A stretch of 40,544 bases of DNA from Clostridia bacterium (lineage in GTDB: Bacteria; Bacillota; Clostridia; Oscillospirales; Acutalibacteraceae), in assembly GCA_017623575.1 (NCBI GenBank), contig JAGAOS010000020.1, forward strand, positions 1 to 40,544, written 5' to 3'. Below, piece by piece: positions 8,401 to 32,114 of this stretch (positions are counted from its first letter, which is position 1; every line of letters starts with the position of its first letter). The notes under the pieces are model-generated. The model did not search any database. It worked only from the letters and a program-made list of their open reading frames with translations, and had not been told where the DNA came from. Made by a program: the position numbers and the translations under genes.

Positions 8401-9654
8401 ATGACAATTATAGAATTTTTTGACCGTACACCAATTGAAAATATAATAAGCTCCATAACGGTTGAGTTTAACAAAATTATTTTTTTGGGCAACGGAAAAA
8501 TGATGGACGAATTCAAGGATATTTATGATGAATTTCTTAAAAAAAGAGAAATGAAAATCGAGGTTCGTTACCGTAACATAAACCGCAACAATCTTCAAAG
8601 TATAGTGGATGATTTATCTGAAATAGTTGAAGAGGAGGAGCAGTGTGTTTTTGATTTGAACGGCGGTGAGGATCTTGCTCTTGTTGCAATGGGAATAGTC
8701 TACAATAAGTATTCTGATAAAAACATACAGATGCAGCACTTTAATATTAATACCAACAAGGTTGAAGATTGCGATAATGACGGTATGGTTGTTGCAAATA
8801 AAAATCCTGAAATCACAATTGATGAGATAATAGGTATTCACGGCGGCAGTATAAAATACTCAAAGGAAAATGCCGAGAACGATATTGGAACCTACAAATG
8901 GGATTTTTCCGATGATTTTATCAATGATATTGATGTTTTATGGGAGCTTTGCCGAAATGACCCCAAAAAGTGGAATACCGAGCTTCGTGTTATAGAAAGA
9001 ATATGCAGTATGGAGCACAACAAAAATGCTTTAAGTGTAACCGCAACCTATGCCGAACTAGAGGAAAGCTTTAAAAATCAAACCCATAATCTGGTGGATA
9101 TAACTGAAATTTTAAGCAATCTGCAAAGTAACAGGCTTATAAACGGATTATTTACAAAAGGCGAAAGCGTTTCCTTTACCTTTAAAAACAAGCAGATTAA
9201 AAAATGTCTGGTTAAGGAGGGCACTGTTTTAGAGCTTAAGGTTTTAACAGCCGCTTCTGGCGCAACCCGTAAGGACGGAACAAAAATATATGATGAATGT
9301 ATGAACGGTGTTGTAATTGATTGGGACGGTGGTCTGCATAACGAAACCGACACCTTTAACGAAATAGATATTATATTGCGCGCAGGGGTAAATACAATAT
9401 TTATATCCTGCAAAAACGGACAGATCCCGCAAGAGGAACTTTATAAATTGGATGCCGTTGCAAATGAGTTTGGCGGCGAAAATGTAAAAAAAGTATTGCT
9501 GGCAACATATTTAGGTAAAAGCGATGCTTCAAAAAATCGCTTTGTTAAGCGTGCTGAGGATATGGATATAATCTTTATTGATAATGTTCACCAAATGAGG
9601 TCTGCAGCCTTTAAGGGTATGGTTAAGAACTTAATTAATGTTAAACCAAATTAA
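8401..9654 (+). CDS. Card1/Can2-like CARF-nuclease (DUF1887 type)
   Basis: 417 residues. The N-terminal half looks like a CARF ligand-binding Rossmann domain: beta strand plus phosphate-loop-like segment FDLNGGEDLALVAMG (residues 84-98), comparable to the DLTGGTK loop of CARF proteins. A helical linker follows, then a C-terminal PD-(D/E)xK-like nuclease: LELKVLTAA (277-285), FNEIDIILRAG (319-329) and IFISCKNG (333-340) with Asp323 and Lys338 as the likely metal and catalytic residues. The residue two before the lysine is Ser336, where classical enzymes have Glu or Asp. Characterised relatives are activated by cyclic oligoadenylate made by type III CRISPR systems and cut DNA or RNA. Here it has its own promoter, and no cas gene or repeat array is in the window. 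Family call from remembered motifs; function is inference. Confidence 0.75.
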   Translation: MTIIEFFDRTPIENIISSITVEFNKIIFLGNGKMMDEFKDIYDEFLKKREMKIEVRYRNINRNNLQSIVDDLSEIVEEEEQCVFDLNGGEDLALVAMGIVYNKYSDKNIQMQHFNINTNKVEDCDNDGMVVANKNPEITIDEIIGIHGGSIKYSKENAENDIGTYKWDFSDDFINDIDVLWELCRNDPKKWNTELRVIERICSMEHNKNALSVTATYAELEESFKNQTHNLVDITEILSNLQSNRLINGLFTKGESVSFTFKNKQIKKCLVKEGTVLELKVLTAASGATRKDGTKIYDECMNGVVIDWDGGLHNETDTFNEIDIILRAGVNTIFISCKNGQIPQEELYKLDAVANEFGGENVKKVLLATYLGKSDASKNRFVKRAEDMDIIFIDNVHQMRSAAFKGMVKNLINVKPN

Positions 9655-9660
9655 ATTAGA

Positions 9661-9697
9661 CGAAGCATTCAAACTTGAATCAGGTTTAAATGCTTCG
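9661..9697 (+). terminator. Hairpin between CARF-nuclease and prsW genes
   Basis: CGAAGCATTCAAAC (9661-9674) pairs with GTTTAAATGCTTCG (9684-9697) with one mismatch, around a 9-base loop TTGAATCAG. It is not followed by a clear T-run, so it may be a weak terminator, an attenuator or an RNA-processing site setting the level of prsW. Its reverse complement shares over 20 bases, with two mismatches, with 32162-32185. Confidence 0.55.
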
Positions 9698-9716
9698 GCA
9701 GAGGAGAGATATTTTT

Positions 9717-10604
9717 ATGGATTTTTTAAACGAGGTACTTTTGTTTTTTGCGGCAGTTTTTCCTGCTATTGCTCTATGTGTTTATGTATTTAAAAAGGAC
9801 CGCGCCGAAAAGGAGCCGATTGGCTTGCTTTTGGGACTTTTTGCTTTGGGGGCGCTTATTTGCTTTCCCGCGGCTATGGCCGAGGAGGCTGTTCTGGATG
9901 CAATAGTTGAGGTGTTTAAGTCGTTTGGCAGGGTAGAAGACGGTATTGTTAAGCTTAGTAGCACCGCCTACACATTTTATAACATAGCCGAAAATTTTGT
10001 GGGCATAGCTCTGGTTGAAGAGGGACTTAAATTTTTAGTTTTATATCTTGTTACGAAAAACAATAAAAATTTCAACAGCCTTTTTGATGGACTTATTTAT
10101 TCGGTATTTGTTTCCTTGGGCTTTGCCGCTTTGGAAAATGTGCTTTATGTTACCGATTCGGGATTTCATCTTGCCATAATCCGCGGCGTTCTTTCGGTTC
10201 CGGGACATATGTTTTTTGCCGTAATTATGGGTTATTATTATAGTATGTGGAATTTGTACGGCAAGGCAAATTCATTAGAAAAGCAGTGCAAATCAAACGG
10301 TATTATTCCACAAAATGCAGTGGAATACAAGTCAGGTAAATATCTTGCGCTAAGCCTTGTTATGCCCATTCTGGCACACGGCTTTTATGATTACTGCTGT
10401 ACTGTAGATGAGGTTACTGCCACAGTTGTTCTTTATGTGTTTGTTGCTTTTCTTTATGTGTATTGCTTTAATAAAATAAGAAAAATGTCTAAAATGGATT
10501 GTTATAACAATGCTCTTGTATTAGGACTTTTAATTAATAAATATCCCGGCATTACGGGGTATTTAGTTCCTGATTCTGCTTTTAATGCTTCTGATGAGAA
10601 TTAA
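9717..10604 (+). CDS. PrsW-family intramembrane protease
   Basis: A 295-residue multi-pass membrane protein (about 7-8 hydrophobic segments). Protease family motifs, numbered from this start: VEEGLKFLVLYLV (Glu101-Glu102), LFDGLIYSVFVSLGFAALEN (Glu140), PGHMFFAVIMG (His164) and LAHGFYDYC (His221). PrsW cleaves the anti-sigma factor RsiW in Bacillus subtilis; no sigma/anti-sigma pair is present here, so its substrate is unknown. The start is the ATG at 9717 with GAGGAGAG upstream; an in-frame ATG at 9690 lies inside the hairpin and is unlikely. It follows the CARF-nuclease gene by 62 bases and may share its transcript. Confidence 0.88.
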   Translation: MDFLNEVLLFFAAVFPAIALCVYVFKKDRAEKEPIGLLLGLFALGALICFPAAMAEEAVLDAIVEVFKSFGRVEDGIVKLSSTAYTFYNIAENFVGIALVEEGLKFLVLYLVTKNNKNFNSLFDGLIYSVFVSLGFAALENVLYVTDSGFHLAIIRGVLSVPGHMFFAVIMGYYYSMWNLYGKANSLEKQCKSNGIIPQNAVEYKSGKYLALSLVMPILAHGFYDYCCTVDEVTATVVLYVFVAFLYVYCFNKIRKMSKMDCYNNALVLGLLINKYPGITGYLVPDSAFNASDEN

Positions 10605-15502: not shown

Positions 15503-16690
15503 ATGTTTGAAATAATAGGCAAGTACAACAAGGCAATGGTTTATGCAACAACGGTTGATAACGGCTCCTATGCACAGGTGCTTAAAATGTGTAATACGGA
15601 AAAGCTTAAAAACAGCAAAATTGCTATGATGCCTGATATGCACGCGGCAGAGGGTTGTACTGTTGGCACCTCCTTAACAATAGATGAATATGTGAACCCT
15701 GCTTTTGTTGGTGGCGATATTGGTTGCGGAATGCAAGTGTTCAGGCTGTCAGACAGCGCTATTGATTTTACAAAGCTTGATGAATGTATTCGCGAAAAAA
15801 TTCCATCGGGGGCAAAAATTTATGAAAAAAGCCTGCCCGCAGTAAGGGATATAGATTTTGAAGCCCTGCATTGTTATGAATATATTCGCCACGAAACGGT
15901 TTTAAAATCCTTTGGTACTTTGGGTGGTGGCAACCATTTTATTGAGGTTGCCCGCGGAAGCGATGATGCCCTTTATTTAATTATTCATTCCGGTAGCCGA
16001 AGGCTGGGTCGTGATGTTGCGCAGTATCATCAGGTTCAGGCGTTTTTTGAGCAACACGGAATTGATTCAGAGCAGGCAAGGAAGAATAAGCTCAGGGTTT
16101 CGGCGGTAAGGTCATCTGTGCATCCCGATGAGTGCTTTTTATCGGGAGAAAATCTTAAAAAATATTTAAGTGATATGGATATTGCCGTTCAGTACGCATT
16201 AAAAAGCCGCATAACTATGGGTGAGGTTATTATAAATACACTTGGTCTTACAGTGGAGGATAGCTTTGCTACAATCCACAATTATATAGATATTTCTGCG
16301 GGTGTGCTCAGAAAAGGTGCTGTTTCCGCTAAAAAGGGCGAAACCCTTTTAATCCCCATTAATATGAAGGATGGCAGTTTGCTTTGCAAAGGAAAGGGAA
16401 ATGAAGAATGGAACTTCACAGCCCCCCACGGCTCGGGTAGAATTATGAAGCGTTCCGAGGCAAAGGAAAACTTTTCGCTGGAGGAATACCGTAGTGAGAT
16501 GGCGGGAATTTTCACCACATCGGTAGGGGAATCAACTCTGGATGAGGCGCCAATGGCATATCGCCGTATTGATGAAATATTGGATGCCATTGAACCCACC
16601 GCAGATGTAGTGGATATTTTAACGCCTGTTTATAATTTTAAAGCCAGCAAGCCTGTTTTAGATGAAGAAGTTATGGATGGAGAGGATTAA
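15503..16690 (+). CDS. rtcB: RtcB-family RNA ligase
   Basis: 395 residues, the short RtcB form. RtcB joins 2',3'-cyclic phosphate (or 3'-phosphate) and 5'-OH RNA ends using GTP and Mn2+, for RNA repair or splicing. Conserved metal and catalytic residues are in order: Asp72 and Cys75 (GGDIGCGM), His145 (GTLGGGNHFIE), His162 (IHSGSRRLGR), His259 (FATIHNY) and the guanylylated His309 (PHGSGRIMKR). The usual RKGA segment is also present. No archease or RtcA gene is nearby. It overlaps the ribosome site of the next gene, a TIM-barrel epimerase-like protein, so the two are probably co-transcribed although no functional link is evident. Confidence 0.92.
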   Translation: MFEIIGKYNKAMVYATTVDNGSYAQVLKMCNTEKLKNSKIAMMPDMHAAEGCTVGTSLTIDEYVNPAFVGGDIGCGMQVFRLSDSAIDFTKLDECIREKIPSGAKIYEKSLPAVRDIDFEALHCYEYIRHETVLKSFGTLGGGNHFIEVARGSDDALYLIIHSGSRRLGRDVAQYHQVQAFFEQHGIDSEQARKNKLRVSAVRSSVHPDECFLSGENLKKYLSDMDIAVQYALKSRITMGEVIINTLGLTVEDSFATIHNYIDISAGVLRKGAVSAKKGETLLIPINMKDGSLLCKGKGNEEWNFTAPHGSGRIMKRSEAKENFSLEEYRSEMAGIFTTSVGESTLDEAPMAYRRIDEILDAIEPTADVVDILTPVYNFKASKPVLDEEVMDGED

Positions 16691-30650: not shown

Positions 30651-32114
30651 ATGGAATATAAATTAGGTAAATATCAGAATATTAATCAAGAAACCAGATG
30701 GGCTACTGTTGAAGAAGTAAAGCGTTCCTCCACTTATGTTGATTTGAATGCAGAAAAGTATCCGGCGGCGGGGTTGCCAATTATGTCGGACGGCAATGAA
30801 GCCTATGTTGATGCCAGCGACACCCATTCGCTTATTTTTGGTGCTACAGGCTCTAAAAAAACCCGACTTTTTTGTATGCCTATGCTTAATATGTTTGTTA
30901 AAGCGGGCGAATCCTTTGTAGCAACCGACCCTAAGGGTGAGCTTTATGCCAGAACAGCGGGCATTGCAAAATTAAACGGATACAATATTGTAGTGCTGAA
31001 TTTTCGTGATATAGGTAAGGGAGATATGTGGAACCCCCTTTCTCTTCCTTACCAAATGTATCATAACGGTAAGTATGATGAGTCCGTTGCAATGCTTAAT
31101 GACTTTGTAAGAACCATTGCGGCTCCTCAGTTTGAAAATACCAAGGATGTTTTCTGGCCTGAAATGGCATCTTCCCTTGCTCTGGCAAACCTTTTACTTT
31201 TAATGGAGGCGGGCAAGCCCGAAGAGGCTAATGTTGCCAGTCTTGCCGCGCTTTGCTCAAGTGTTTCCATTGAAAAGCTTAAAAAACTTAGCGATAATAT
31301 GAGAATGGATACTATAGCAGGTCTTAATTATAAGAATATTTTTACAAGTGCTGAAAAGACACTTCAAAGCATAATGGTGTCACTTTTTGGTATGATCCGT
31401 ATTTTCACAACCCAAAAAAATCTTACAAATATGCTTTCGGGCAATACAATAGATATTTCTAAATTCGGCAGAGAAAAAACAGCCGTTTATCTTATTGTTC
31501 CTGATGAAAAAAGCACATATCATTTTTTAATAACAACCTTTATTAAGCAGGCGTATGAAATTCTTATAGCAGAGGCGCAAAAGGAACAAAAAAGAACCTT
31601 ACCTGTACGCGTGAATTTTGTGTTGGATGAGTTTTGTAATTTGCCTCAAATTCCTGATATGCCTTCAATGATTTCAGCGGCGCGAAGCCGTAATATGCGC
31701 TACTTCCTTGTTGCACAAAGCCTGCATCAGCTTAAATCACGCTATGGTGAGGATGCAGATACCATTAAGGGCAATTGTGATAACTGGGTATTTCTAACCT
31801 CAAAAGAGCTAGCCTTACTTGAAGAAATCAGCGCCCTTTGCGGTTCTTACTATACCGCAAACGGACTGAATCGCAGATTGGTTTCTGTTTCTGAATTGCA
31901 AAGGCTGGATAAAGAAAAAGGCGAAGCGCTTATTATGCATTCCCGTCAATATCCGGTGATTTCAGAGATTGCCGATATTGATCAATATGAAATGTTTAAG
32001 GGTTATGCTGCAATGCCGTTGACCGAGTATGTAATGCCTGAGGCTAAAATGTTTAATCTGGATGAGTTCTATTTTGATGTTGTTCATGAGCTGCGTCCGT
32101 TACCTTTCTCCTAG
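30651..32114 (+). CDS. VirD4/TraG-like coupling ATPase without T4SS genes
   Basis: 487 residues. Type IV coupling-protein ATPase fold: Walker A variant GATGSKKTR (residues 64-72, the usual GSGK glycine is lysine), FVATDPKGELYARTA (residues 89-103), Walker B VNFVLDEFCNLPQIPDMPSM (321-340), then the sensor region SAARSRNMRYFLVAQSLHQL. There is no N-terminal transmembrane segment, so it is a soluble form. Coupling proteins pump DNA or protein through type IV systems, but no relaxase, VirB4 or channel gene is in the window. Start with AAAGGATG site. It is co-transcribed with the AAA-like gene. Confidence 0.85.
   Translation: MEYKLGKYQNINQETRWATVEEVKRSSTYVDLNAEKYPAAGLPIMSDGNEAYVDASDTHSLIFGATGSKKTRLFCMPMLNMFVKAGESFVATDPKGELYARTAGIAKLNGYNIVVLNFRDIGKGDMWNPLSLPYQMYHNGKYDESVAMLNDFVRTIAAPQFENTKDVFWPEMASSLALANLLLLMEAGKPEEANVASLAALCSSVSIEKLKKLSDNMRMDTIAGLNYKNIFTSAEKTLQSIMVSLFGMIRIFTTQKNLTNMLSGNTIDISKFGREKTAVYLIVPDEKSTYHFLITTFIKQAYEILIAEAQKEQKRTLPVRVNFVLDEFCNLPQIPDMPSMISAARSRNMRYFLVAQSLHQLKSRYGEDADTIKGNCDNWVFLTSKELALLEEISALCGSYYTANGLNRRLVSVSELQRLDKEKGEALIMHSRQYPVISEIADIDQYEMFKGYAAMPLTEYVMPEAKMFNLDEFYFDVVHELRPLPFS

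What the first reader, a model, noticed from the sequence alone, without database searches (positions are those of the whole stretch)
8401..9654. Stand-alone Card1/Can2-like CARF nuclease with no CRISPR locus beside it
The gene has its own promoter and encodes a CARF-like N-terminus (FDLNGGEDLALVAMG) and a nuclease C-terminus (FNEIDIILRAG, ISCKNG). Known relatives are switched on by cyclic oligoadenylate from type III CRISPR. Here it sits between a sugar operon and housekeeping genes. It could be a remote effector of a type III system elsewhere, or answer another cyclic-nucleotide or stress signal. The residue two before the catalytic Lys338 is Ser, not Glu/Asp, which may change metal use or cleavage mode.
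Basis: partly seen in the sequence, partly recalled or inferred. Interest (0 to 1): 0.75.

Follow-up and report, generated by a model that had tools for sequence, protein, structure and literature searches.

The report
CRISPR-unlinked relative of Card1/Can2 nucleases
A bacterium related to gut and rumen Oscillospiraceae carries an intact switchable nuclease of the kind that type III CRISPR uses as an alarm effector, but with no CRISPR alarm found in its genus, an altered signal pocket and a rearranged active site, which suggests that it answers a different signal.

Summary
The gene is real, intact and under purifying selection. It belongs to PADLOC's CARF4--CARF_PDDEXK group (E 1.5e-26); its family profile matches VC1899 and Can2 in the PDB, while Pfam's Card1_endonuc stays below cut-off. 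The Ser before the catalytic Lys is no quirk: all 66 distinct S-C-K sequences examined carry a Glu on the next helix (346 or 349), which resembles the permuted PD...K...E site of Cfr10I-type enzymes. Where Can2 grips cA4 (Ser19, Lys99) this clade has Asp8 and Asp/Glu91, like the cA4-blind orphan VC1899. No Cas10 palm domain in the 8 genomes of the genus; 2 of 22 named carriers have one, one of them marginal. Of 36 close loci, one is a type III-B operon with an array; 17 instead hold a Clp-FtsH fusion protease and/or a membrane TrkA_N/RyR-like protein. Best reading: a CRISPR-unlinked, ligand-switched nuclease, from a protease/membrane-sensor gene network, answering something other than cA4. The structure machine was always busy; ligand, substrate and role are untested. 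New variant of a known kind.

The parts
8401..9654 (+). CARF4--CARF_PDDEXK nuclease gene, 417 aa
8401..8865 (+). CARF domain, about residues 1-155 (border approximate, from the alignment with Can2)
8422..8424 (+). Asp8, at the position of Can2 Ser19
8662..8673 (+). Gly88-Gly89-Glu90-Asp91; Asp91 at the position of Can2 Lys99
9196..9639 (+). PD-(D/E)xK nuclease domain, about residues 266-413 (border approximate)
9358..9369 (+). Asn320-Glu321-Ile322-Asp323, the NExD motif (Glu276/Asp278 in Can2)
9406..9414 (+). Ser336-Cys337-Lys338, in place of Glu-Cys-Lys
9436..9438 (+). Glu346, proposed relocated active-site Glu
9690..10604 (+). PrsW-family protease gene (alternative start 9717); conserved neighbour in one other species, membership not proven

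Best explanation
A ligand-switched nuclease of the CARF4/DUF1887 kind, homodimeric by analogy with Can2 (inferred), that is not the effector of a CRISPR system in this lineage. A small ligand other than cA4 binds an acidic CARF pocket (inferred from sequence); this opens the PD-(D/E)xK domains, which cut nucleic acid with a permuted active site in which Glu346 on the following helix stands in for the missing Glu of ExK (inferred from a swap present in all sequences examined). Relatives work in a recurrent gene cluster with a Clp-FtsH fusion protease and a membrane TrkA_N/RyR-like protein; the window copy is a diverged, detached member of that network, probably part of a defence or stress response. 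Shown here: domain make-up, conserved catalytic set, replaced cA4 contacts, carriers mostly without Cas10, operon-like links of relatives. Not shown: ligand, substrate, dimer, biological role.
For: PADLOC CARF4--CARF_PDDEXK and PDB profile matches to VC1899 and Can2. S-C-K with a Glu at 346 (43) or 349 (23) in 66 of 66 distinct sequences; the E-C-K proteins Can2, VC1899 and L121 have Thr/Lys, Thr/Lys and Phe/Lys there. The Cfr10I family has the same kind of permutation (PMC6344858, passages). Asp/Glu at the Lys99 position in 33 of 33 close rows; VC1899, an orphan with a largely acidic and hydrophobic pocket, is not cA4-regulated (PMC7969007, passages). Cas10 palm over cut-off in 1 of 10 strong carriers among 148 relatives, no enrichment (p 0.44), and in 2 of 22 named carriers, one marginal. 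Of 36 close loci 11 have the complete Clp-FtsH fusion and one more (L017) has it cut by the locus end, 10 have the TrkA_N/RyR-like gene, 17 have either; in 14 one of these is a same-strand neighbour within 200 bp. TrkA_N/RyR-like genes co-occur with the nuclease across genomes (4 of 10 strong carriers against 6 of 138 others, p 0.002, relatedness not corrected). dN/dS about 0.2 against two same-genus orthologues.
Against: The relative L028 sits 43 bp behind a type III-B cmr operon whose Cmr2 keeps GGDD, next to a CRISPR array, and has the same acidic motif (SGGED), so that pocket may still suit a Cas10-made messenger. A more distant carrier, G052 (L075), also has a Cas10 in its genome. The window copy itself lacks the protease and RyR-like neighbours; only 1 of its 2 same-genus orthologues has a shortened TrkA_N/RyR-like gene. 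19 of 36 close loci have neither (some with short flanks). Pocket and helix Glu rest on sequence alignment only. The E-C-K protein 8bao has Asp at 346, so the swap is not clean for all acidic residues. The TrkA_N and RyR labels of the membrane protein come from Pfam matches below cut-off.
Confidence: 0.55

Rival explanations
1. It is a remote effector of a type III CRISPR system: a Cas10 elsewhere in the cell makes a cyclic oligoadenylate or SAM-AMP that this CARF domain binds in a different way from Can2.
For: The relative L028 is directly behind a cmr operon with intact Cmr2 GGDD and an array, with the same CARF motif. The own assembly is 70% complete, so a type III locus could be missing.
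Against: No Cas10 palm domain in 8 of 8 genus genomes, of which 3 carry the nuclease, nor in 20 of 22 named carriers; Cas10 not enriched among strong carriers. L028 is nested within CRISPR-unlinked relatives in the tree, though its exact place is weakly supported.
Confidence: 0.17
2. It is a stress or repair nuclease of the host that senses a product of damage (for example RNA ends or NAD-derived nucleotides) rather than infection, as the CARF domain of RtcR does for RNA repair.
For: Neighbour families of relatives are proteases, membrane TrkA_N/RyR-like proteins and, in two, TIR-TPR proteins. RtcR is a CARF protein outside CRISPR (search listing of PMC9650030). No relatives on plasmids, phages or viral contigs.
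Against: Patchy occurrence (22 of 148 relatives with any match; 3 of 8 in the genus) suits an accessory gene better than a core repair function. Nothing shows a damage signal.
Confidence: 0.18
3. It is a degenerate leftover, cast adrift from CRISPR as was proposed for VC1899.
For: VC1899-like pocket and loss of the Glu of the ExK motif.
Against: Catalytic residues Glu278, Glu321, Asp323, Lys338 invariant in 41 of 41, dN about 0.33 against dS about 1.6, recurrent operon-like neighbours in relatives.
Confidence: 0.07

Closest known systems
Can2 / Card1 (DUF1887, PF09002)
   Same: CARF plus PD-(D/E)xK layout, NExD motif, family-level profile match to 7bdv.
   Different: Ser-Cys-Lys instead of Glu-Cys-Lys, helix Glu346, Asp at the Ser19 and Lys99 positions, no type III system found in the genus.
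VC1899 (1xmx), orphan DUF1887 protein of Vibrio
   Same: Profile match over most of the length, orphan, acidic pocket positions (PMC7969007, passages).
   Different: VC1899 has Glu-Cys-Lys and Arg96 where this clade has Ser-Cys-Lys and Asp/Glu91.
PADLOC CARF4--CARF_PDDEXK
   Same: Full-length match, E 1.5e-26.
Cfr10I/NgoMIV CCGG-family endonucleases
   Same: Permuted PD...K...D/E active site (PMC6344858, passages).
   Different: Site-specific restriction enzymes without a CARF domain; compared for the permutation alone, not for kinship.

Membership tests
CARF4--CARF_PDDEXK (PADLOC) | Full-length profile match | tested here: met
   PDLC01881, residues 2-413, E 1.5e-26
Card1/Can2 (PF09002) | Card1_endonuc profile over its curated cut-off | tested here: not met
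   14.9 bits against 26.4; the family profile does match Can2 and VC1899
Card1/Can2 (PF09002) | Glu-x-Lys catalytic motif | tested here: not met
   Ser-Cys-Lys; Glu346 may replace the Glu
Card1/Can2 (PF09002) | NExD acidic motif of the nuclease | tested here: met
   Glu321 and Asp323, invariant in 41 of 41
Card1/Can2 (PF09002) | cA4 contacts Ser19, Thr42, Lys99, Tyr118 (Can2 numbering) | tested here: not met
   Asp8, Asn31, Asp91, His113 by alignment
Card1/Can2 (PF09002) | cA4-activated DNase/RNase | not testable with these tools
   Needs purified protein
Card1/Can2 (PF09002) | Fold: CARF dimer and PD-(D/E)xK core | not tested
   All 22 structure requests were answered 'machine busy'
Type III CRISPR ancillary effector | Encoded beside, or at least in a genome with, Cas10 | tested here: not met
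   0 of 8 genus genomes; the own genome is 70% complete, so absence there is not final
Permuted PD...K...E nuclease | Acidic residue moved from ExK to the next helix | tested here: inconclusive
   66 of 66 sequences fit; no structure obtained
Clp-FtsH / TrkA_N-RyR-like gene cluster | Fusion protease or RyR-like gene within 6.5 kb of the CARF gene | tested here: not met
   Not for the window copy; met for its paralogue L082 and 17 of 36 close loci in all

The most novel reading that the evidence does not exclude
A CRISPR-independent signalling system in Oscillospiraceae: a membrane TrkA_N/RyR-like sensor, a Clp-FtsH fusion protease and a CARF nuclease with a permuted active site, answering a ligand that is not an oligoadenylate (perhaps NAD- or ADP-ribose-related, or cationic). 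Type III-B CRISPR has in one lineage (L028) recruited this nuclease, rather than the nuclease having been lost from CRISPR.
Probability: 0.35. Interest if true: 0.72.

Novelty: new variant of a known kind. Interest (0 to 1): 0.52.

Why it matters
What CARF domains sense outside CRISPR is open; the best-studied orphan, VC1899, was suggested to be degenerate (PMC7969007, passages). Here a large, conserved clade with an intact catalytic set and a VC1899-like acidic pocket sits in recurrent operons, so the question becomes testable: purify a member and find its ligand. The Ser/Glu swap names a residue (346 or 349) for mutagenesis. The Cmr-linked relative L028 is a natural control: the same pocket motif with a known kind of messenger source.

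Tried and rejected
The Ser as a peculiarity of this protein: rejected, it is family-wide. Type III elsewhere in the own genome: no Cas10 found. CD-NTase as signal source: SMODS in 2 of 148 relatives. Mobility: no relatives found in plasmids, phages or viral contigs. PrsW as a system member: its subfamily is in 12 of 148 relatives with varied neighbours in the four further loci looked at; it stands near a TrkA_N/RyR-like gene and a transglutaminase gene once, in L153, a genome without this nuclease, and beside the CARF gene in two species; I leave it as a neighbour, not a proven partner.

Corrections and rows dropped. My first gene table hid the CARF gene in L010, L014 and L029 under longer opposite-strand frames; one search puts them back. 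Its cluster c1 mixed the fusion protease with an ordinary FtsH (L005); L017, at first set aside for length, proved to be the fusion cut by the locus end and is counted (12 with fusion, 17 with either). L008 (a second contig of the assembly of L007) and L064 (same contig as L028) were left out, as was L031 (partial); L029 and L030 are 98% identical but count as two; window and L082, and L069 and L071, are pairs from one genome. Several loci have short flanks (for example L012, L039). The eight distant rows and L075 are not among the 36. In one search, 26 wider sequences were printed: 23 S-C-K (L108 and L110 are the same genes as L074 and L073), 2 E-C-K (L116 was not parsed) and one spurious pattern match (L100); L112, L119 and L120 gave no motif. 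The 66 are 41, L010, L014, L029 and L075 (read by eye), and 21.

Papers. Five searches for this gene combination showed no description in the held library; most subscription papers are not held, and the main CARF classification paper (Makarova 2020) and the nucleotide-centric-systems paper that I tried were not held.

Full report
What is there. The window is one contig of an unnamed 2.04-Mb assembly of 82 contigs, 70% complete. The ORF at 8401-9654 encodes 417 aa. The protein matches PADLOC CARF4--CARF_PDDEXK from residue 2 to 413 (E 1.5e-26). Pfam's Card1_endonuc is below its cut-off. A profile of 34 relatives (A2) matches the solved structures VC1899 and Can2. Against two same-genus orthologues (60% and 58% identical) dN is 0.33 and 0.32 and dS 1.55 and 1.72, so the gene is kept by selection; dS is near saturation.

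The Ser question. In Can2 and VC1899 the motif is Glu-Cys-Lys; here it is Ser-Cys-Lys. Ser336, Lys338, Asp323, Glu321 and Glu278 are invariant in 41 of 41 sequences. Residue 346 is Glu in 32 of them, each with Lys349; in the other 9, residue 349 is Glu and 346 is Ala or His. A wider Clostridia set, drawn with the Pfam model (29 of 291 genomes match), gives 23 S-C-K sequences, 21 of them new, all with Glu at one of the two places, and four more follow: 66 of 66, 43 at 346 and 23 at 349. L096 and L097 have Asp346 besides Glu349. The E-C-K proteins Can2, VC1899 and L121 have no Glu there, but 8bao has Asp346. Positions 346 and 349 would lie one helical turn apart. In Cfr10I-family enzymes the lysine and the acidic residue are interchanged, and PfoI shows a one-turn shift of another active-site Glu (PMC6344858, passages). 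I conclude, as inference, that the Ser marks a permuted active site rather than a dead one.

The signal question. Four residues of Can2 contact cA4 in the way shared with Can1: Ser19, Thr42, Lys99, Tyr118 (PMC7969007, passages). By the alignment they correspond to Asp8, Asn31, Asp91 and His113 here; the register at 91 is fixed by the Gly-Gly pair. Asp or Glu91 holds in 33 of 33 close rows, Asp8 in 30 of 33, and position 113 is Arg, His or Lys in 31 of 33. VC1899 has Asp9, Asp34, Arg96 and Val115 at these places, is an orphan, and has weak RNase activity not regulated by cA4 (PMC7969007, passages). The window protein is thus VC1899-like, and more acidic at 91. cA4 sensing in the manner of Can2 is unlikely; the ligand is unknown.

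Is a type III system near? The Cas10 palm profile finds nothing in the own genome or the 7 same-genus genomes; the Cmr2 profile finds nothing in the own genome; the Csm1 profile finds in all 8 only a weak match (31 to 35 bits, cut-off 170) to its N-terminal part in a protein of 520 to 595 aa, which I take to be an ordinary HD-domain protein (not tested). Of 10 strong carriers (over 200 bits) among 148 relatives one, G031, has Cas10 over cut-off; 8 of 148 have it in all, so it is not enriched in carriers (p 0.44). Among the 22 genomes with any match to the nuclease profile, G031 and the distant carrier G052 have Cas10. Of 22 genomes behind the named loci, G451 (L028, the same contig as in G031) has a clear Cas10 and G445 (L022) a hit of 27.9 bits against a cut-off of 27; the same model also rings in E. 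coli, so the latter may be an ordinary GGDEF protein. SMODS (CD-NTase) domains are in 2 of 148 relatives, G031 being one.

The exception. L028/L064, a rumen Ruminococcus assembly, has Cmr2 (palm E 5.9e-27), Cmr3, two RAMP proteins and a Cmr5-like protein (below cut-off) directly upstream on the same strand, the last of them 43 bp from the CARF gene, and 12 copies of a repeat at 66-70-base spacing downstream. Its Cmr2 keeps GGDD. This relative is very probably a type III effector, and it has the same GGED motif as the window protein. In the tree it falls in a five-row group with CRISPR-unlinked rows (98/93), inside the larger unlinked clade; its exact place is weak (88/49).

The other neighbourhood. 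Of 36 close loci, 11 have a complete fusion of a Clp-type AAA_2 module with an FtsH AAA and M41 peptidase within 6.5 kb (domains scanned on L007), and L017 has one cut by the locus end; the complete copies in these loci show two Walker A motifs and one HExxH each (L082 is cut there but complete). Ten have a membrane protein with TrkA_N-like and RyR-like regions (Pfam matches below cut-off in some members, none in others), including a shortened one in L065. Seventeen have either, and 14 have one as a same-strand neighbour within 200 bp. A separate 93-aa protein beside some of these is a plain RyR domain (E 7.4e-38). TIR-TPR, transglutaminase, VWA-like (weak) and Tubulin_2 proteins occur in some clusters. 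The paralogue in the own genome (C49, 41% identical) sits 131 bp before the fusion protease. The window copy does not; its genus group keeps CARF and then radical SAM, with PrsW between them in two species and the shortened TrkA_N/RyR-like gene in the third. CARF-free G001 has at that place a 284-aa protein without a match in my set. The own genome has a longer TrkA_N/RyR-like gene (748 aa) on another contig. Such genes also co-occur with the nuclease across genomes (4 of 10 strong carriers against 6 of 138 others, p 0.002; relatedness not corrected).

What is known. [quoted passage not shown] A survey of conflict systems describes FtsH, vWA and tubulin components; RyR and PrsW do not occur in its main text (PMC7159879, passages). 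I saw no description of this CARF, Clp-FtsH and RyR combination in five searches, which cover only openly licensed papers.

Verdict. A real, conserved, CRISPR-unlinked variant of the Card1/Can2 kind, with an acidic CARF pocket and a permuted active site by sequence. Its function as a ligand-switched defence or stress nuclease is inferred, not shown.

Noticed in passing
window 15503-16690 (+): Looks like an RtcB-type RNA ligase (read by eye, not scanned), 6 kb from a CARF nuclease.
   Followed up: no
window 30651-32114 (+): TraG/VirD4-like coupling protein (by eye) between exopolysaccharide-type and arginine-synthesis genes.
   Followed up: no
L082 1457-19900 (own genome, contig C49): Long cluster: VWA-like, Tubulin_2, a transglutaminase-like 1735-aa protein, a small lipoprotein-like protein, CARF nuclease, Clp-FtsH fusion.
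   Followed up: partly
L065 10528-11046: 172-aa protein that seems to be a TrkA_N/RyR-like membrane protein without its middle: N-terminal membrane part and C-terminal RyR-like end only.
   Followed up: partly
L064 9618-15873: VWA-like and tubulin-like genes directly after the CRISPR array of the type III-B locus; relatives of both families also sit in the own-genome paralogue cluster.
   Followed up: no
G031: The one close carrier with a Cmr system also has a CD-NTase (SMODS) gene on another contig.
   Followed up: no
L007 and L008: Two contigs of one assembly (RGIG3008) carry the same cluster; perhaps an assembly duplicate.
   Followed up: no
window 9661-9697: Strong hairpin (z -3.9) without a T run between the CARF and PrsW genes.
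   Followed up: no
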